From contig JALNLN010000015.1 in the NCBI GenBank assembly GCA_023267855.1, positions 1 through 38,202 of the forward strand: a stretch of 38,202 nt of DNA, in the 5' to 3' direction. Numbering within the stretch: position 1 is the stretch's first letter; every line of letters begins with the position of its first letter. A model generated the notes under the pieces. That model was not told the origin of the DNA and did not search any database. It saw only the letters and a list, made by a program, of their open reading frames with translations. This stretch comes from Candidatus Geocrenenecus dongiae (lineage in GTDB: Archaea; Thermoproteota; Nitrososphaeria_A; Caldarchaeales; Wolframiiraptoraceae). The translations under genes were made by a program, and so were the position numbers. Below are positions 15,151 through 22,736 of this stretch, piece by piece.

Positions 15151-15543
15151 CTACAATTCATCTTTTTTAAGTATATCTGAAAGCAATCTATACTCTCCAT
15201 CTTTATAGAATTTTATACTTGTTTCTAATCTTACACGTAACCCTAAGCTTTCGAACAACTTTAACAATGCCCCACCAGGTATCTCTCCACTTAAACTTCC
15301 TTCTAGAATCTTCTTAGCTATAGCTACTACTATCTTCTTCGTAATCTCTGGGTAATCTCTAAGAGCAACTTCAAGAACCTCGTCTCCCCTATCAACTAAA
15401 TGTTTCTGGACTATTTCTAAAGCTTTCGAAAAATCTAATTCTCCAGACTTCTCTTTAGACTCAACAGGACGTTGAGACATCATCTGCTTCAACTTCTTCA
15501 ATCTGAGCAATTTCAATTCTAAGCTCTCATCCATATCTACCAA
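15151..15543 (-). CDS. Conserved hypothetical protein, basic helical N-terminus
   Basis: A 130-residue protein I do not recognise. It starts with a charged helix (ELKLLRLKKLKQMMSQRP), then a predicted helical block (FSKALEIVQKHLVDRGDEVL, DYPEITKKIVVAIAKKIL) and ends in an alpha/beta part (GGALLKLFESLGLRVRLETS, FYKDGEYRLLSDIL). There are no cysteines, no signal peptide and no membrane segment. It sits between gcvH (75 bp downstream) and the acyl-CoA dehydrogenase-like gene (113 bp upstream) on the same strand. Codon use resembles its neighbours, so it is likely a real gene. Confidence 0.65.
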   Translation of the reverse strand: MVDMDESLELKLLRLKKLKQMMSQRPVESKEKSGELDFSKALEIVQKHLVDRGDEVLEVALRDYPEITKKIVVAIAKKILEGSLSGEIPGGALLKLFESLGLRVRLETSIKFYKDGEYRLLSDILKKDEL

Positions 15544-15656: not shown

Positions 15657-17150
15657 CTACTTCTTCTTTAAAGCTTCATCTAGATCGTAATCTCTATCTC
15701 TTTCCAATTCTTTTTTAATCTTCTTTGCTTCAGATTCTCCAGCCGCCTCAGATAACATCTTATCTGTAGTTTTCTCTATAAGATTAGCTTTCCTGTGTAT
15801 TCTTCTACTCAGCCATTCTTCGTAACCCCCCCACTTGAAAGGCCCATAAAGACCTTGAGCTATGTCTAGTAAGTCTCTTTGCGCTCCTCCAAGCCACATC
15901 TGTATGATCTTGAAGTCTCGATAATATTTCTCAACATTCATCTCGAAAGAGTATCCATAGGAGCCCATAAGCTCCATAGCTTTGTTTGTACAGAACATGG
16001 CTGCTTCTCCAGCAAATGATCTGGCAGAAGAGAATTTTGCAATCATGTGAGGTTGCCAGGGTTCACCGTAAACGTCTGGTCGTGAAGCTTGCCAAGTCAC
16101 TGATAGATAATACTGTCTCGCTAAATCTATCATACGATACATCTGTGCTAGTATAGAAGCAAATAGAGATCTTTCTCTAACAGGTTTTCCAGCAATCTCT
16201 CTATCCTTCGTCCACTCTAAAGCTATCTCTAACACTGCAGTTGATATGCCTGTGAGTCTCGCAGCACCAGCTAATCTACCTAACCCCACAATATACCCTT
16301 TAATGATCTTTGCTCCATCGCCGGGCTTAGTATCGATACGGTACTTTGCAGGAACCTCCACATTTTCAAACCACATATCTACATTCTCATCTGTTAAACA
16401 GAAACCACATTTCTTGTATGGTTCTCCAAAACTCATACCTTTAGCATTATATGGTACATATACTATTCCAGCTACTTCCTCACCTCTTGATGGATCTTCA
16501 GATACTACAATCCAGTAACCCAGGTGTCCAGCAAATATCTCAGGCCACTTTTCACGCCACTTATCCCAGTATTCAGGTTTAGCTGCAGGCCCAGGCCATA
16601 TCTTATGCCCATTTAAAATATATGAATCGCCCTGCTTCTTAGCTATTACAACATTTAGTGTTCTAAATTCTAAAGATGGGTCTTCTATATTAGCTCCACC
16701 TTCTGGTTCTGTAATACATACACAAGCTATGTAAGGTACTTTTCCAGTAAGTTTTGGTGAGAATTCTTCTAGTAAATCTCTTCTAGCATGGACACGATTG
16801 AACATTATAGAAACTATCCAGTGAATTTTACCAACCAGTGTACTTAACCCTGGATCTCCTCTAGAGAGTTCTTCATTTATCATCTGTCTAACTACTGGTG
16901 AAAATCCTCCTCCACCATATTCTACAGGAAGATTAGCAGTAGTTAATCCAAGTTTATGACACTTATAGTAAAGTTCATACAGAGTCCTATGAGCAAGTTC
17001 TTCATCTCTATGCCATCCGCCTTCTAGATCCTGTCTCCTTGGAAATACCTCTTTCTCCGTAAATTCTCTTATACTCTTAGCTATCAATAATTCTTCATCA
17101 GTACAAAAACATCTAGGATACTTATGTTCAGGTTCAAGAAGCAGATACAA
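15657..17150 (-). CDS. Acyl-CoA dehydrogenase-family flavoprotein lacking the canonical catalytic Glu
   Basis: A roughly 497-residue flavoprotein of the acyl-CoA dehydrogenase fold, about 100 residues longer than usual because of an insert (WDKWREKWPEIFAGHLGYW) and a charged C-terminal tail. The N-terminal helical domain has ANLPVEYGGGGFSPV, the FAD/substrate strand reads VCITEPEGGANIED, and MELMGSYGYSFEMNVEKYYR precedes the active-site segment. That segment, normally IYEGT with the catalytic base, is QMWLGGAQ here, so Glu is replaced by Leu. The alternative base position of isovaleryl-CoA dehydrogenase (LERL) is LGRL. The protein may act on an unusual substrate or not be a dehydrogenase. A TTG at 17150 is preferred because GAGGTG (17158-17163 on this strand) is well spaced; an upstream TTG is at 17171. 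Divergent from the lactonase operon. Confidence 0.8.
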   Translation of the reverse strand: MYLLLEPEHKYPRCFCTDEELLIAKSIREFTEKEVFPRRQDLEGGWHRDEELAHRTLYELYYKCHKLGLTTANLPVEYGGGGFSPVVRQMINEELSRGDPGLSTLVGKIHWIVSIMFNRVHARRDLLEEFSPKLTGKVPYIACVCITEPEGGANIEDPSLEFRTLNVVIAKKQGDSYILNGHKIWPGPAAKPEYWDKWREKWPEIFAGHLGYWIVVSEDPSRGEEVAGIVYVPYNAKGMSFGEPYKKCGFCLTDENVDMWFENVEVPAKYRIDTKPGDGAKIIKGYIVGLGRLAGAARLTGISTAVLEIALEWTKDREIAGKPVRERSLFASILAQMYRMIDLARQYYLSVTWQASRPDVYGEPWQPHMIAKFSSARSFAGEAAMFCTNKAMELMGSYGYSFEMNVEKYYRDFKIIQMWLGGAQRDLLDIAQGLYGPFKWGGYEEWLSRRIHRKANLIEKTTDKMLSEAAGESEAKKIKKELERDRDYDLDEALKKK

Positions 17151-17171
17151 AACATTACACCTCTTAATCAA

Positions 17172-17272
17172 ACACTACTTTCCAGAATTGCTATTTAATA
17201 TTTTTATTTACAATATATAAATAGTAGTAATGTATATATAGTAGATTTTAAGTTTTTTATTGAGGTTTTGGT
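17172..17272. promoter_or_regulatory. Divergent promoter region, acyl-CoA dehydrogenase-like gene and lactonase operon
   Basis: A very AT-rich stretch. TATATATA at about 17233-17240 fits a plus-strand TATA box, and a GAGG (17262-17265) sits ahead of the lactonase ATG at 17273. AATATTTTTATTTA (17201-17214) could serve the minus strand. No clear operator is seen. Confidence 0.4.
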
Positions 17273-18088
17273 ATGGGTGTCAAGAATATATACCTTTTAG
17301 ATTTCGGCATTCTTTCAGGAGAGTTGGGATGGTTTTTACCTGATCCAGCTGGTTGGACAGAAACCGTTGTTGAAAAGAAGCCTAAGATACCTGTATGGAC
17401 AGATATACCTGTAACTGGAGCAGTTATAGAACATACAGATGGAAGAGTGTTGATAGATAGTGGTAGTCATCCTGAAGCAAAAAAAGTTTGGGGACCAGTA
17501 TGGGAAGTATTTCCAATGACAAAGTTCACTGATGAAAATCGGTTAGAGAATCAATTAAAACTGATTAATTTAAAGCCTGAAGACATAGATTATGTTGTTT
17601 TTACACATTTACATCTAGATCATGCAGGTCAAGCATACCTCTTCAAAGATCTCAAGAAACCTCTAATCGCACATAAGAAAGAATTAATGTGGGCAGTATA
17701 CTTACTGTATCTCGGGAAAGCTGGTGCATACCAACCTGTAGATCTTGAAGCATTGAAAGGAGGAGAATGGTTTACTTTTGAAGGAGAAACATTCGAACTT
17801 CTTCCAGGCATAGAATTAATGTTTGTTGGAGGGCACACTCCTGGAAGTATTATAATAAAAGTAGAAACAGAAGCTGGGAACAACTATATCTTTACAGGAG
17901 ATTTCATACATCTACCTGAAGAACTTGAGAAAGAATCAAAGGGATGGTTGCTTGGAGATGTAGATGAATACATAACTGGTCTAAGAAAGATAAAATTATT
18001 GGCGAAGAGACCTCGGACAAATCTAGTAATAAGCCATGATCCCAAATTATGGGAGAAATATCCCAAAGCACCTAAAGCTCTCAGATAG
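17273..18088 (+). CDS. Metallo-beta-lactamase-fold lactonase, AiiA/BlcC (AttM) family
   Basis: A 271-residue cytosolic dinuclear-zinc hydrolase. Metal ligands are HLHLDH (His112, His114, Asp116, His117), His in GGHTPGS, Asp in FTGDFIH and His in VISHDP. The stretch FTDENRLENQLKLINLKPED before the first motif and the PGIELMFVGGHTPG segment closely follow AiiA and AttM/BlcC, which open N-acyl-homoserine lactones or gamma-butyrolactone. It is followed 27 nt later by an iron alcohol dehydrogenase gene, the same pairing as blcC-blcB of Agrobacterium, which favours a small gamma-lactone such as gamma-butyrolactone as substrate. The substrate is inference from context; the fold and metal site are clear. 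Confidence 0.83.
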   Translation: MGVKNIYLLDFGILSGELGWFLPDPAGWTETVVEKKPKIPVWTDIPVTGAVIEHTDGRVLIDSGSHPEAKKVWGPVWEVFPMTKFTDENRLENQLKLINLKPEDIDYVVFTHLHLDHAGQAYLFKDLKKPLIAHKKELMWAVYLLYLGKAGAYQPVDLEALKGGEWFTFEGETFELLPGIELMFVGGHTPGSIIIKVETEAGNNYIFTGDFIHLPEELEKESKGWLLGDVDEYITGLRKIKLLAKRPRTNLVISHDPKLWEKYPKAPKALR

Positions 18089-18115
18089 ATAGATAAGTCT
18101 TAGATGAGGTCAGAA

Positions 18116-19381
18116 ATGTTCGAGCCATTTTATTCTTCTCCAAACGATACTATATTTACTATTAGAAATGTTCAAGCAAAGTTTGGGGAAGGTGTTAGTT
18201 CAGAAGTAGGTTACGAGGCAAGAAGACTTGGAATCAAGAAAGCATTAATAGTCACAGACAAGAATATAAATGAGAATACTAAGATTCCTTCAAAGATAAA
18301 AGAATATCTTGAGGAAGCTGGTGTTAAAGCTGAAATATTTGATGGTACGCATATAGAACCTATTGATACAGAAGTTATCAAAGCTATAGAATTTGCTAAA
18401 GGAAAAGATTATGATGGATTTATAGCTGTTGGTGGTGGATCATCTATAGATACAGCTAAAATGATAAATCTGTACGTAACTTACCCTACACCTGATTTCA
18501 AAGATTATATCGCACCTCCAACAGGTGGGGGAAAACCTGTTCCAGGTCCTCTTAAACCACTGATATGTATTCCTACAACTGCGGGAACTGGAAGTGAGAA
18601 TACTCCTGTTGCTATTGTAGATCTAGTTAAGGAGAAATTGAAGGTAGGGATTTCCCATCCATATCTATTACCTTCCTTTGCTTTGCTAGACCCCGTCCTT
18701 ACAATTTCTCTTCCACCTTACTACACTGCTTCAACAGGTATAGATGCGCTCATGCATTGTATAGAATGTTATACTGCTATTCCATACTACGCTAGACCTA
18801 GACCAGCATCTCCAGATAAAAGACCAGTTTACATAGGCTCTAACCCCGTTTCAGACATCTTTGTAGAGAAAGCGATAGAGTTAATAGGAAAGTATTTGAG
18901 AAAAGCGTACTATAATCCATATGATATAGAAGCGAGAAGGAACATGCTTTTAGCAGCACATCTAGGTGGTGCTTTCGGGAACGCTGGAGTACATATCTCA
19001 CATGCACTAGCATATCCAATAGCTGGTAGAAGACATGATCTACCACACGGTATAACCGTAGCTATAACAGGACCGGCCATGCTTGAATTTCTTGAACCAA
19101 TAGTTCCAGAAAGACTTGCTAGGATAGCTCAACTCTTAGGAGAAAAAATTGAAGGACTTAAAATTAGAGAAGCAGCTGCTCTAGCTAAGGAAGCTTTGAT
19201 AAAATTGATGAAAGATCTTAATCTACCCTCAGGTATAAGTGAATTCGGTTTTGAAGAAAAAGATATAAGAGAACTCTCTGAAGGAGCAATACTACAACAA
19301 AGATTACTGGCAGTAAGCCCTAGACCTGTAACTATAAATGATATCTCAGAGATCTACAAGAAAAGTTTACACAACTGGTAA
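18116..19381 (+). CDS. Iron-type alcohol dehydrogenase, hydroxyacid-oxoacid transhydrogenase (ADHFE1) subgroup
   Basis: A 421-residue group III alcohol dehydrogenase. It has the NAD-binding GGGSSIDTAK, PTTAGTGSE, a metal-ligand helix DALMHCIECYTA, and His in HISHALAYPIAG and LPHGI. The segment SNPVSDIFVEKAIELIGKYL, then EARRNMLLAAHLGGAFGNAG, VHISHALAYPIAG, is characteristic of the ADHFE1 group. Those enzymes oxidise 4-hydroxybutyrate to succinic semialdehyde while reducing 2-oxoglutarate to D-2-hydroxyglutarate. ATG 18116 is favoured by TGAGGT 5 nt upstream; ATG 18104 has no such site. It forms an operon with the lactonase; a D-2-hydroxyacid dehydrogenase lies 0.7 kb downstream. Substrate is inferred from subgroup and neighbours. 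Confidence 0.82.
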   Translation: MFEPFYSSPNDTIFTIRNVQAKFGEGVSSEVGYEARRLGIKKALIVTDKNINENTKIPSKIKEYLEEAGVKAEIFDGTHIEPIDTEVIKAIEFAKGKDYDGFIAVGGGSSIDTAKMINLYVTYPTPDFKDYIAPPTGGGKPVPGPLKPLICIPTTAGTGSENTPVAIVDLVKEKLKVGISHPYLLPSFALLDPVLTISLPPYYTASTGIDALMHCIECYTAIPYYARPRPASPDKRPVYIGSNPVSDIFVEKAIELIGKYLRKAYYNPYDIEARRNMLLAAHLGGAFGNAGVHISHALAYPIAGRRHDLPHGITVAITGPAMLEFLEPIVPERLARIAQLLGEKIEGLKIREAAALAKEALIKLMKDLNLPSGISEFGFEEKDIRELSEGAILQQRLLAVSPRPVTINDISEIYKKSLHNW

Positions 19382-19414
19382 TAAACAAAAGAAGTTCCTA
19401 AATATCGAAATCAA

Positions 19415-19429
19415 TTTTTAATATTTTTT
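19415..19429 (+). terminator. T-rich terminator candidate after the alcohol dehydrogenase
   Basis: Two T-runs (T5 then T6) lie 34-48 bp after the stop. Archaeal termination needs little more than such oligo-T stretches. No strong hairpin is seen. Confidence 0.45.
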
Positions 19430-19490
19430 ATTACGTTAATTATAAAAACTAATATAAAAGCTTAGAATTGAAGGAGGCTATTCATACTAT

Positions 19491-19502
19491 AAGCATATGC
19501 TT
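19491..19502. repeat. Perfect 12-bp palindrome upstream of the CBS gene
   Basis: AAGCATATGCTT, about 77 bp before the CBS start and 35 bp upstream of its TATA box. It could be an operator or a chance palindrome in AT-rich DNA. Confidence 0.3.
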
Positions 19503-19536
19503 GTAAAGATTATGAGAAGCTGTTACTGTCTGTTTA

Positions 19537-19545
19537 GGTTTATAT
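19537..19545 (+). promoter_or_regulatory. TATA box deciding the start of the CBS gene
   Basis: TTTATATAA lies only a few bases ahead of the first ATG at 19549 but about 38 bp ahead of the second ATG at 19579. The second start is therefore the likelier one. Confidence 0.5.
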
Positions 19546-19578
19546 AACATGGTTTTCTTCTATAGTCGAGAGTTGTCT

Positions 19579-19983
19579 ATGAAGAGGTTTCAGATTGCTA
19601 ATATAACTGTAGATGAAGTTATGACGAGGAACTTGGTTACCATTACTGTTGGTAGTAGTGTAGAGGATGCTGTAAGAAAGATGATTGAATATGATGTTGA
19701 ATGTCTACCTGTTGTAGATTCTGAAGGTATACTACACGGTTTAATCACTTTTAGAGATATCGTCACGAAAGCCGTGTTAAGTCATAAAGATGTAAAAGAA
19801 CTTAAAGTTGAAGATATAATGACTAGAAACCCTATCACCTGTAGTCCTAAATCCACAATCCTAGAAGTCGTTAAGATAATGAAGAATAAACATTTAAGAA
19901 GAATTCCTGTCGTAGATTCTAATAATAAGTTGATGGGCTTAATTACAGATTTTGATCTAACAATTATAGGATGGGGGAAGTAG
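19579..19983 (+). CDS. Tandem CBS-domain protein
   Basis: A 134-residue protein made almost entirely of two CBS domains. Each opens with a VDEVMTRN or VEDIMTRNP motif, followed by VEDAVRKM or LEVVKIMK and the VVDSEG/VVDSNN strand with LxGLIT. CBS pairs bind adenosine nucleotides (AMP, ATP, SAM) and act as sensors of energy state, alone or bound to an enzyme. It lies between the transhydrogenase and the FAD dehydrogenase on the same strand with its own promoter, so it might report energy status to this cluster. That link is inference only. Confidence 0.85.
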   Translation: MKRFQIANITVDEVMTRNLVTITVGSSVEDAVRKMIEYDVECLPVVDSEGILHGLITFRDIVTKAVLSHKDVKELKVEDIMTRNPITCSPKSTILEVVKIMKNKHLRRIPVVDSNNKLMGLITDFDLTIIGWGK

Positions 19984-20061
19984 CAAGCAGTACACTGCAT
20001 TCAGAAGTATTTCTCAAAAAGATAAATAATAGGATTGCTTACTGATTGTCTTGAAGAGTTT

Positions 20062-21465
20062 ATGAAGACTTACTTTAACAAGGTTTCTAGAAGTGATTTA
20101 GAGTTTTTTGAGAAATTGTTAGGTAGTAGGAATGTTTCTACTAGTGAAGAAGAATTGGTGGTGAATTCTATTGATGCTTTTCAGGGAGATTTCTATAGAG
20201 CAGATGTAGTTTTATGGCCTGAGACTACTGAACATGTTGTAGAGATACTTAGGTATGCTGATCAGCATCGTATACCTGTTTACCCCAGAGGTGGTGGAAC
20301 AGGATTGACTGGAACAGTTCCAGTATATGGAGGAATAGTTCTCAGCATGTTAAAGATGAATAAGATAGTTGAGGTCTACGAAGAAGATATGCAGGTAACT
20401 GTTGAAGCTGGAATGATATACGAAAAGCTCAACAAGGAGCTCGAGAAGTATGGCTTATTCTTTCCCCCAGATCCTTCAAGTGGATCTGTATGTACTATTG
20501 GAGGTATGGTTGCTTCTAATTCATCTGGATTAAAAGCTGTAAAGTATGGTACGACGAGAGACTACGTTCTAGGATTTGAATTAGTCTTTGCAGGTGGAAG
20601 GAAGATGAAGCTTGGATCTAGAACATTCAAGTACTCTACTGGATACGATTTAGCGAGAATGATGATCGGGTCTCAAGGAACTCTAGGAGTCTTCACAGAG
20701 ATAACACTTAGATTAAGAAAACTGCCCCAAGATTTTAAGACAGCTCTAGCATTCTTTCCAACAGTAGAATCTGCAGTAAAATCAATCTGCAAAATAGTTA
20801 GAACTGGTTTAGATGTAGCTGCACTAGAATTTGTTGATGAACCTTTAATCAAGAATATTTCAGAGTATAAGAAGATATCTTTTCCTGAATCTAAAGCAAT
20901 GGTCTTGGTTGAGGCTCATGGTTCAGCACGTTATGTAGAAGACGTGTTGGAGGGGTGTTGCAACATATTTAGAGAGAATGATGCTGTTGATATTTGGATA
21001 ACTAGAGATCGTGAGGAGAGAGAATTTTTCTGGTCGGCTCGTAGAAGTGTTTACCCAGTCTCCCTGAGGCATAGTAGGTATCTTGTTATAAGCGATCTAG
21101 TTGTACCGATCTCGAAACTCTTAGAAGCCGTATTGAAGACTTATGCTATAGCTGAGAAATATAAGATAAAAGCTTCAGTTATAGGTCACTTCGGAGATGG
21201 AAATATACATGTTCACTGGTTTTTAGGAGATAATAGAGAACTTTTACCCATAGCTCATAAAGCTAATGATGAATTAGCTGAATGGGTAATAGATGTCGGT
21301 GGAGCTGTATCTGGAGAACATGGGATAGGAACTGAGAAGAAGAAGTTTATGAAGTTACAGCACGGTGAAGCCTACGATCTCATGCTACAGATTAAACGTC
21401 TGCTCGATCCTAAATGTATACTCTCACCTGGAGTAATCTTTGATGTAGATGAAGTAATACAGTAG
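20062..21465 (+). CDS. FAD-dependent D-2-hydroxyacid dehydrogenase (GlcD/D2HGDH family)
   Basis: A 467-residue VAO/PCMH-type flavoprotein. The FAD pyrophosphate loop is PRGGGTGLTG, followed by FFPPDPSSGSVCTIGGMVA and the KYGTTRDYVLG segment. The C-terminal catalytic domain carries GHFGDGNIHVHWF and SGEHGIGTEKKKFM, both hallmarks of glycolate, D-lactate and D-2-hydroxyglutarate dehydrogenases. ATG 20062 is chosen; an AT-rich box near 20020-20030 suits it, while the frame is open from TTG 20035. The Fe-S gene follows after 26 nt, as in glcD-glcF. With a 2-hydroxyglutarate-producing transhydrogenase nearby, D-2-hydroxyglutarate is a reasonable substrate; D-lactate or glycolate cannot be excluded. 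Confidence 0.85.
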   Translation: MKTYFNKVSRSDLEFFEKLLGSRNVSTSEEELVVNSIDAFQGDFYRADVVLWPETTEHVVEILRYADQHRIPVYPRGGGTGLTGTVPVYGGIVLSMLKMNKIVEVYEEDMQVTVEAGMIYEKLNKELEKYGLFFPPDPSSGSVCTIGGMVASNSSGLKAVKYGTTRDYVLGFELVFAGGRKMKLGSRTFKYSTGYDLARMMIGSQGTLGVFTEITLRLRKLPQDFKTALAFFPTVESAVKSICKIVRTGLDVAALEFVDEPLIKNISEYKKISFPESKAMVLVEAHGSARYVEDVLEGCCNIFRENDAVDIWITRDREEREFFWSARRSVYPVSLRHSRYLVISDLVVPISKLLEAVLKTYAIAEKYKIKASVIGHFGDGNIHVHWFLGDNRELLPIAHKANDELAEWVIDVGGAVSGEHGIGTEKKKFMKLQHGEAYDLMLQIKRLLDPKCILSPGVIFDVDEVIQ

Positions 21466-21491
21466 TATGTTTCAATATAAAGGTGGATGAT

Positions 21492-22736
21492 ATGACTATA
21501 GAGAAACATAATGGAGAATATTTGGACCTACTTTTACAAGATGTGTTTAAATGTGTTAGATGTGGTTTCTGTAATAGTGTCTGTCCAACATCAAACATAT
21601 CGATCTCATACATGGGTTCAAGAACATCACGTGGAAGAATAGTGATACTCCAAGCATATTTCTCAAACATATTAAACAAGCCTATAGAGAGTGATGAGAT
21701 ACAGGAAGCTTTTGACTATTGTTTTGGGTGTCGTAGATGTTTAGATATATGTCCTGCAGGAGTCAAGATACCTCAGATAGTATGGAGAGTGAAATCCCTC
21801 AAAGCTAGGAAGAGACTTCTACATAGATTTCTTTTCTCAAACTATGGTTTACTTGAAAAAATTTGTTCTAAGATGCCGAAATTATCAAATACCTTTCTCT
21901 CCAGTTCTCTTGGAAAAACAATGCTAGAAAGATTGTATGGGATAGATAGAAGGGTTAGTTTTCCAAAATTTTATGAAGTGAGTTTGGAGAGCTGGTTCAG
22001 AAGGAGGAGGTTTCAGAATAGTGGTGGGAGAAAACTCTCATACTTCGTAGACGTTTTTACAAATTATCATGAAGTAGATCTTGGAATAGAAATCGTAACA
22101 ACACTTGAGAAACTAGGTTACAGTATCAGTATTCCTCCGCAGAAAGAGGCTGGCACAATACTTTTTGAAGAAGGATTAATAGAAGAAGCATTAAAGATAG
22201 CAAGATATAACATAGAAAATCTGTATAAGTCTATTGTAAATGGTTCAGTAATCTTGACTAGCTCTCCTGCAGCTTACCTAGCCTTAAAGAAAGATTACCC
22301 TGAGTTCCTTGGAGATGAAAAGTCTAGAATTGTTGCAGATAATACTTTCGATGTTCTCGAACTACTACTAAGAGACGTTGAAGAAGGTCGAGTAAAATTG
22401 GATAGTAGAGAAGGATTTAAGATAACCTACCATCATAGTTGTTTTACTAAGGCTTCTGGATTAACGAAAACCATAAAGAGACTTCTATCTTACGCTGAAT
22501 ATGATTTAAAAGAAGTTGATCAGTGTTGTGGAATAGCTGGACTATGGGGGATGAAGAAAAAACATTTCGATCAAGCTATTGAAGTTGGTTCAGGATTGTT
22601 CAGCGAATTGAAGAATCTTGCGATTCCTGTCACTTCTCAAAGTGAAACATGTAGACTTCAAATAAGACATAATACAGGAATAGATGTTAAACATCCATTC
22701 CAGTATATTTCAGAGATTATTGAGCCCCGTCCATAA
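21492..22736 (+). CDS. GlpC/GlcF-like Fe-S subunit with a degenerate first CCG domain
   Basis: A 414-residue electron-transfer partner of the preceding flavoprotein. Two [4Fe-4S] motifs lie near the N-terminus: CVRCGFCNSVCP and CFGCRRCLDICP. The C-terminal CCG domain is intact (HHSCFTKA, then VDQCCGIAGLWG). The first CCG-like half has lost its cysteines: FVDVFTNYHE stands where CxxN is usual, and QKEAGTILFEEG stands in place of CCGxP. It probably keeps both cubane clusters and one cysteine-rich site. ATG 21492 is supported by AGGTGG just upstream (21481-21486); a GTG at 21483 is possible. Electrons probably go to the quinone pool or a soluble carrier; no membrane segment is seen. Confidence 0.85.
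   Translation: MTIEKHNGEYLDLLLQDVFKCVRCGFCNSVCPTSNISISYMGSRTSRGRIVILQAYFSNILNKPIESDEIQEAFDYCFGCRRCLDICPAGVKIPQIVWRVKSLKARKRLLHRFLFSNYGLLEKICSKMPKLSNTFLSSSLGKTMLERLYGIDRRVSFPKFYEVSLESWFRRRRFQNSGGRKLSYFVDVFTNYHEVDLGIEIVTTLEKLGYSISIPPQKEAGTILFEEGLIEEALKIARYNIENLYKSIVNGSVILTSSPAAYLALKKDYPEFLGDEKSRIVADNTFDVLELLLRDVEEGRVKLDSREGFKITYHHSCFTKASGLTKTIKRLLSYAEYDLKEVDQCCGIAGLWGMKKKHFDQAIEVGSGLFSELKNLAIPVTSQSETCRLQIRHNTGIDVKHPFQYISEIIEPRP

What the first reader, a model, noticed from the sequence alone, without database searches (positions are those of the whole stretch)
17273..22736. Possible archaeal gamma-butyrolactone/4-hydroxybutyrate module coupled to D-2-hydroxyglutarate oxidation
The sequence shows an AiiA/BlcC-type lactonase followed closely by an ADHFE1-type iron dehydrogenase, the same pairing as Agrobacterium blcC-blcB. 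Downstream lie a CBS sensor, a GlcD/D2HGDH flavoprotein and its Fe-S partner. A coherent scheme is lactone to 4-hydroxybutyrate, then transhydrogenation with 2-oxoglutarate to succinic semialdehyde and D-2-hydroxyglutarate, then FAD/Fe-S oxidation back to 2-oxoglutarate with electrons to respiration. It would oxidise 4-hydroxybutyrate without free NAD. I do not know this set described in archaea. No succinic-semialdehyde dehydrogenase is in the window.
Basis: partly seen in the sequence, partly recalled or inferred. Interest (0 to 1): 0.7.

Follow-up and report, generated by a model that had tools for sequence, protein, structure and literature searches.

The report
Archaeal lactone-to-semialdehyde oxidation gene module
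A hot-spring archaeon carries, next to each other, a gene for a lactone-opening enzyme and a gene for an unusual iron alcohol dehydrogenase related to human ADHFE1; the same pair turns up in many unrelated archaea and some bacteria beside aldehyde-oxidising enzymes, so it is probably a general lactone-degrading module, although the proposed coupling through D-2-hydroxyglutarate is not supported by the active site of the neighbouring flavoprotein.

Summary
The genes are real. The window belongs to an aigarchaeal MAG of the genus of Candidatus Geocrenenecus. The order lactonase-ADH-flavoprotein-Fe/S is conserved in two congeners, lactonase-ADH in a third; the CBS gene occurs only here.
Haloarchaeal and Deinococcus plasmids have the pair too; Halobacterium hubeiense has lactonase-HOT-SSADH in tandem. 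Elsewhere AOR or ALDH genes adjoin it. This supports lactone -> hydroxyacid -> semialdehyde -> acid, 4-hydroxybutyrate being the likeliest substrate.
The ADH is ADHFE1-like: it has HOT insert 1 and is sister to two-insert HOTs (97/93), but lacks insert 2. Agrobacterium BlcB is outside that group, so the blc match is analogy.
The D-2-hydroxyglutarate arm is weak: the flavoprotein keeps the general 2-hydroxyacid catalytic residues, but all four C5-carboxylate contacts differ (Thr390->Tyr, Lys401->Ile, Tyr432->Ile, Asn443->His). The lactonase has His for catalytic Tyr194. Coupling remains possible: GlcD-type genes adjoin this ADH in three genera, and HOT adjoins fused FAD/Fe-S genes in two actinobacteria. 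Verdict: new variant of a known kind.

The parts
17273..18088 (+). AiiA-type metallo-beta-lactamase-fold lactonase (271 aa); HxHxDH and the other metal ligands intact; His where AiiA has Tyr194 and GcL has Tyr223
   Evidence: orthologues in 15 of 398 genomes
18104..19381 (+). HOT/ADHFE1-like iron alcohol dehydrogenase (425 aa), 15 bp after the lactonase; HOT insert 1 present, insert 2 absent; proposed 4-hydroxyacid (4-hydroxybutyrate) oxidation
20035..21465 (+). GlcD/LctD-type FAD-dependent D-2-hydroxyacid dehydrogenase (476 aa, or 467 aa from 20062); general catalytic residues intact, D2HGDH C5-carboxylate residues not conserved
21483..22736 (+). GlpC/GlcF-like Fe-S electron-transfer subunit (417 aa), presumed partner of the flavoprotein
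19549..19983 (+). two-CBS-domain protein, present only in this genome between ADH and flavoprotein; probably a later insertion, not a core part
15657..17171 (-). acyl-CoA dehydrogenase family protein (504 aa), divergent neighbour conserved within the genus; relation to the module unknown
17172..17272 (.). AT-rich divergent intergenic region between acyl-CoA dehydrogenase and lactonase, presumed promoter region
   Evidence: sequence only

Best explanation
A small lactone-catabolic module. The MBL enzyme opens a small lactone (most likely gamma-butyrolactone or a near homologue) to a 4-hydroxyacid. The ADHFE1-like Fe-ADH oxidises the hydroxyacid (most likely 4-hydroxybutyrate) to a semialdehyde (succinic semialdehyde). 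An aldehyde oxidoreductase encoded elsewhere in the genome, probably one of the eight AORs, makes the diacid (succinate). The neighbouring GlcD-type flavoprotein and its Fe-S subunit oxidise a D-2-hydroxyacid and pass electrons to an Fe-S/quinone acceptor; whether that 2-hydroxyacid is made by the ADH as a transhydrogenase product, and whether it is D-2-hydroxyglutarate, is open, and the pocket argues against a canonical D2HGDH. Shown here: gene order, conservation, family placement, recurrent pairing, active-site residues. Inferred: substrates, direction, coupling, and which aldehyde oxidoreductase serves.
For: The pair recurs across 8 genera of the phylum, adjacent in 6; P for co-occurrence about 1e-9 by genus, ignoring relatedness above genus. 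It also occurs in haloarchaea and Deinococcus with lactonases of only 25-29% identity to this one, so the association was probably made more than once. Halobacterium hubeiense has lactonase-HOT-SSADH in tandem. AOR genes adjoin the pair in three g117 genomes and adjoin the ADH in G026; an SSADH-like ALDH adjoins the pair in G328 and an ALDH overlaps the ADH in G299. In G126 a HOT-like homologue lies beside sucCD, with an HpaB-family gene in the same 20 kb (67-bit match; reading it as 4-hydroxybutyryl-CoA dehydratase is mine). Two actinobacterial HOTs have fused FAD/Fe-S neighbours, one of them also an SSADH. ADHFE1 oxidises 4-hydroxybutyrate and its worm orthologue 3-hydroxypropionate by transhydrogenation (PMC5125639, PMC10096224).
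Against: No enzyme assayed. The ADH lacks HOT insert 2. The lactonase lacks the catalytic Tyr (His instead), so its substrate may not be a gamma-lactone. The window genome has no adjacent SSADH or AOR, and its only ALDH is MMSDH-like. The natural source of the lactone is unknown. G120 and G392 have the lactonase without this ADH; g4, G026, G126, G161, G108 and G285 have the ADH without the lactonase; congener G004 has neither.
Confidence: 0.55

Rival explanations
1. One reading: the ADH is a 4-hydroxybutyrate:2-oxoglutarate transhydrogenase and the flavoprotein/Fe-S pair re-oxidises D-2-hydroxyglutarate, so 4-hydroxybutyrate is oxidised without free NAD.
For: ADH sister to canonical HOT; HOT directly followed by fused FAD/Fe-S (YdiJ-like in M. 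dioxanotrophicus, 442 bits, cut-off 1350) in M. dioxanotrophicus and R. ruber YYL; GlcD-type gene within 1 kb of the ADH in three genera (g1, g99, g127; the last two are one family) where 0.07 are expected; the same metabolic pairing is shown in C. elegans (PMC10096224).
Against: Window flavoprotein has Tyr/Ile/Ile/His for the four C5-carboxylate residues Thr390/Lys401/Tyr432/Asn443 of D2HGDH, and Lys401 is essential in the human enzyme (PMC7801405); it scores below LctD, LDHD and GlcD. Most genera with the pair have no adjacent flavoprotein.
Confidence: 0.2
2. Same lactone/hydroxyacid oxidation, but the transhydrogenase partner is another oxoacid (pyruvate or glyoxylate) and the flavoprotein re-oxidises D-lactate or glycolate.
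For: Flavoprotein pocket pattern is closer to D-LDH/GlcD (PMC7801405, PMC10589216); the single GlcD-type flavoprotein of the genome sits in this cluster.
Against: Known HOTs are described with 2-oxoglutarate in the papers read; there is no direct evidence for pyruvate or glyoxylate as acceptor.
Confidence: 0.15
3. The ADH is a plain NAD(P)-dependent 4-hydroxybutyrate dehydrogenase/SSA reductase, as expected in dicarboxylate/4-hydroxybutyrate-cycle archaea, and the flavoprotein is an independent lactate/glycolate dehydrogenase that happens to share the cluster.
Against: No 4-hydroxybutyryl-CoA dehydratase family hit in the window genome, so no cycle; the lactonase implies the oxidative direction; flavoprotein neighbours recur in three genera.
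Confidence: 0.25
4. An archaeal propionate shunt: acyl-CoA dehydrogenase, enoyl-CoA hydratase, a thioester hydrolase (the MBL), HPHD-1-like ADH and MMSDH convert propionyl-CoA through 3-hydroxypropionate to acetyl-CoA.
For: Divergent acyl-CoA dehydrogenase conserved in the genus; the genome's only ALDH is MMSDH-like; one clear enoyl-CoA hydratase; worm HPHD-1 is the ADHFE1 orthologue (PMC10096224).
Against: The hydratase lies in its own operon with acyl-CoA dehydrogenase, thiolase and hydroxyacyl-CoA dehydrogenase genes, as read from the translations; the window's acyl-CoA dehydrogenase is not beside the pair in the other genera examined; the MBL is AiiA-type, and the pair sits with SSADH in Halobacterium.
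Confidence: 0.1

Closest known systems
Agrobacterium blcABC (attKLM) gamma-butyrolactone operon
   Same: AiiA-type lactonase next to an Fe-ADH; predicted lactone -> hydroxyacid -> semialdehyde (pathway in PMC3907764)
   Different: BlcB lacks the HOT insert and lies outside the HOT-like clade; lactonase only 25% identical to AttM with His for the catalytic Tyr; no SSADH in the cluster, a flavoprotein/Fe-S pair instead
Halobacterium hubeiense pSTJ001 lactonase-HOT-SSADH operon (L095)
   Same: lactonase and HOT-like ADH in tandem, archaeal
   Different: adds SSADH; lactonase about 27% identical with the usual Tyr; no flavoprotein
HOT + D2HGDH in animals (human ADHFE1/D2HGDH, C. elegans HPHD-1/DHGD-1)
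   Same: HOT-type ADH functionally paired with a D-2-hydroxyacid flavoprotein
   Different: ADH lacks HOT insert 2; flavoprotein lacks the D2HGDH C5-carboxylate residues; a separate Fe-S subunit is present
HOT + fused FAD/Fe-S on plasmids of M. dioxanotrophicus and R. ruber YYL
   Same: HOT adjacent to an FAD/Fe-S oxidoreductase; SSADH nearby in M. dioxanotrophicus
   Different: fused, YdiJ-like protein; no AiiA-type lactonase annotated nearby

Membership tests
HOT subfamily (cd08190) of Fe-ADHs | insert 1, 19 residues between helices alpha5 and alpha6 (PMC5125639) | tested here: met
   window residues IPYYARPRPASPDKRPVYIGS, absent from BlcB and other Fe-ADHs
HOT subfamily (cd08190) of Fe-ADHs | insert 2, 13 residues between helices alpha8 and alpha9 (PMC5125639) | tested here: not met
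   absent in window and congeners; present in a 14-row sister clade (100/99); absent also in haloarchaeal proteins annotated as HOT
HOT subfamily (cd08190) of Fe-ADHs | grouping with HOTs and not with ordinary Fe-ADHs in a tree | tested here: met
   sister to two-insert HOTs 97/93 with insert columns removed; butanol and glycerol dehydrogenases were not in the tree, but score far lower in NCBIfam
HOT subfamily (cd08190) of Fe-ADHs | 4-hydroxyacid:2-oxoacid transhydrogenation without added NAD(P) | not testable with these tools
   needs purified enzyme
AiiA-type AHL lactonase / BlcC | HxHxDH plus His, Asp, His metal ligands | tested here: met
AiiA-type AHL lactonase / BlcC | catalytic Tyr194 (AiiA) / Tyr223 (GcL) | tested here: not met
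   His in the window and all thermoproteotal orthologues; Y223F costs more than 100-fold for some AHLs in GcL (PMC11423328)
AiiA-type AHL lactonase / BlcC | NCBIfam equivalog cut-off (AhlS, AttM, AiiA) | tested here: not met
   90, 85 and 67 bits against cut-offs of 475, 390 and 375
D-2-hydroxyglutarate dehydrogenase | 2-hydroxyacid catalytic residues Arg386, His434, His441, Glu475, His476 | tested here: met
   with PMC7801405
D-2-hydroxyglutarate dehydrogenase | C5-carboxylate residues Thr390, Lys401, Tyr432, Asn443 | tested here: not met
   Tyr, Ile, Ile, His in the window
GlcD/LctD/LDHD-type D-2-hydroxyacid dehydrogenase | catalytic residues present with a non-carboxylate pocket | tested here: inconclusive
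   fits at three of four positions, but His at the Asn443 position is polar, not hydrophobic; TIGR00387 377 bits, below its cut-off
blcABC-type operon | lactonase + 4HB dehydrogenase + SSADH together | tested here: not met
   no SSADH in the cluster; present in the Halobacterium relative
DC/4HB-cycle SSA reductase | co-occurrence with 4-hydroxybutyryl-CoA dehydratase | tested here: not met
   no PF11794 hit in the window genome

The most novel reading that the evidence does not exclude
A widespread archaeal lactone-oxidation system in which an ADHFE1-like enzyme moves hydride from a 4-hydroxyacid to a 2-oxoacid and a dedicated GlcD-type flavoprotein/Fe-S pair re-oxidises the resulting D-2-hydroxyacid, so the hydroxyacid is oxidised without free NAD(P) and its electrons go straight to an Fe-S/quinone carrier, with tungsten AORs finishing the aldehyde.
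Probability: 0.25. Interest if true: 0.75.

Novelty: new variant of a known kind. Interest (0 to 1): 0.5.

Why it matters
The Fe-ADH survey read here says that the activity of HOT proteins outside animals is unknown (PMC5125639). A conserved lactonase-HOT pair beside SSADH, ALDH or AOR genes in archaea of two phyla and in some bacteria gives a direct, testable function for them, and heat-stable enzymes suited to structural work. No description of this pair in archaea was found in the papers searched, but most subscription papers are not held.

Tried and rejected
The named genome scan with the ADH found only three congeners. 4-hydroxybutyryl-CoA dehydratase was sought and not found, against a DC/HB cycle. 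The propionate-shunt idea was tested through acyl-CoA dehydrogenase, enoyl-CoA hydratase and MMSDH contexts and lowered. The CBS gene was dropped as a core part because congeners lack it. Two family scans failed on frame errors and were repeated. Literature searches for an archaeal lactonase-HOT pair, and for HOT in THF degradation, found no description. The sigma-70 promoter/terminator scan is uninformative for an archaeon. No structure was predicted: it would not decide the substrate.
Full report
Observation. The ORFs are as described and their families are right at the broad level. The window is contig C33 of a 1.44 Mb genome; its close relatives are MAGs named Aigarchaeota archaeon SKYB24, Candidatus Geocrenenecus huangii and Nitrososphaerales archaeon KUA_Bin06. 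Geocrenenecus belongs to Wolframiiraptoraceae (PMC9246946). In G001 and G003 the order acyl-CoA dehydrogenase (divergent), lactonase, ADH, flavoprotein, Fe-S is kept; in G002 the lactonase-ADH pair sits at a contig end; a fourth congener, G004, has neither lactonase nor ADH hit. The CBS gene is missing from the congeners' clusters, so it is probably an insertion in this genome.

The lactonase-ADH pair. Searching 398 genomes of the phylum, the lactonase (E at most 1e-30) was found in 15 genomes of 9 genera and the ADH (E at most 1e-70) in 24 genomes of 13 genera. Eight genera have both. They are adjacent in six (tandem in the window genus, G144 and G328; divergent neighbours in G388, the g117 genomes and G228). 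In G348 both genes lie at contig edges in the orientation a divergent pair would give; in G299 they are on different contigs. Hypergeometric P is about 1e-9 by genus, and about 0.02 adjacent pairs would be expected by chance. These figures ignore relatedness above genus.

Outside the phylum. The closest plasmid homologues of the ADH are annotated 'hydroxyacid-oxoacid transhydrogenase'. On haloarchaeal plasmids the lactonase precedes HOT in Natronococcus, Haladaptatus and Halobacterium hubeiense, the last followed by an NAD-dependent SSADH. In Deinococcus wulumuqiensis HOT is followed by an AttM-annotated lactonase. These lactonases are only 25-29% identical to the window's, so the association probably arose more than once, or is very old; I could not tell which.

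Aldehyde-oxidising neighbours. AOR genes adjoin the pair in the three g117 genomes and adjoin the ADH in G026; an SSADH-like ALDH is divergent from the pair in G328; an ALDH overlaps the ADH in G299 (the AORs of two g117 genomes are assigned by likeness to the one scanned). The window genome has eight AORs and one ALDH, MMSDH-like (431 bits, cut-off 448.5). So a separate SSADH is not required, although which enzyme serves is unknown.

ADH identity. Insert 1 of the HOT subfamily is present; insert 2 is not (definition in PMC5125639). With insert columns removed, two-insert HOTs form one clade (100/99), and the window genus is its sister (97/93); BlcB and ordinary Fe-ADHs fall elsewhere, with long branches that make BlcB's exact place unsure. 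I therefore call it HOT-like, not HOT.

Flavoprotein. Human D2HGDH holds the C5 carboxylate with Thr390, Lys401, Tyr432 and Asn443, and mutation of Lys401 abolishes activity; D-LDH and GlcD mostly lack these residues (PMC7801405). At those positions the window has Tyr, Ile, Ile, His, while Arg386, His434, His441, Glu475 and His476 are kept (alignment based partly on chain fragments printed; residue numbers mapped by me through the mouse LDHD numbering of PMC10589216). The congeners agree. The best solved relatives are LctD, LDHD and GlcD. Against dismissing coupling: the window genome's only GlcD-type flavoprotein is this one; such genes also adjoin the ADH in G228 and G299 (one family, a different flavoprotein subfamily that lacks the Arg), with 0.07 lineages expected; and HOT directly precedes a fused FAD/Fe-S gene in M. 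dioxanotrophicus and R. ruber YYL, which I know as ether degraders; their THF route via gamma-butyrolactone and 4-hydroxybutyrate is from memory. In C. elegans the ADHFE1 orthologue and D2HGDH are shown to be partners (PMC10096224).

Lactonase. All metal ligands are present, but every thermoproteotal orthologue has His where AiiA and GcL have the conserved Tyr (role of the Tyr in PMC11423328). The protein is lactonase-like; AHL lactonase activity should not be assumed.

Conclusion. Shown: a conserved pair, its family placement, its recurrent aldehyde-oxidising neighbours and active-site residues. Inferred: gamma-lactone/4-hydroxyacid substrate, oxidative direction, coupling to the flavoprotein. 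D-2-hydroxyglutarate as carrier is the weakest link.

Noticed in passing
19549-19983: Two-CBS-domain ORF sits between ADH and flavoprotein only in this genome; in congeners the two genes nearly abut.
   Followed up: yes
L124 and neighbours, G007:C6:173871-175318: The sister genus carries a broken copy of the acyl-CoA dehydrogenase, in several pieces with stops (43-69% identity).
   Followed up: partly
L023 (G002:C14), about 1604-2417: The lactonase copy in G002 matches in two pieces in different frames, with a stop reported; a frameshift or an assembly error.
   Followed up: no
15151-15543: 130-aa ORF conserved in the genus (57-58% identity) beside a glycine-cleavage H gene, with no Pfam or NCBIfam match.
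   Followed up: no
17273-18088 and thermoproteotal orthologues: Conserved His at the AiiA Tyr194 position across the whole thermoproteotal lactonase group; Tyr in haloarchaea, AttM and GcL.
   Followed up: partly
L090:11983-16127 and L092:8010-12430: HOT followed by a fused FAD/Fe-S protein on plasmids of M. dioxanotrophicus (4-base overlap) and R. ruber YYL.
   Followed up: partly
G000, eight sites: Eight aldehyde:ferredoxin oxidoreductase genes in a 1.44 Mb genome, fitting a tungsten-using lineage.
   Followed up: partly
L117:6689-11523: Separate beta-oxidation-type operon: acyl-CoA dehydrogenase, enoyl-CoA hydratase, thiolase and hydroxyacyl-CoA dehydrogenase, with ETF-like genes on the other strand next to it.
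   Followed up: partly
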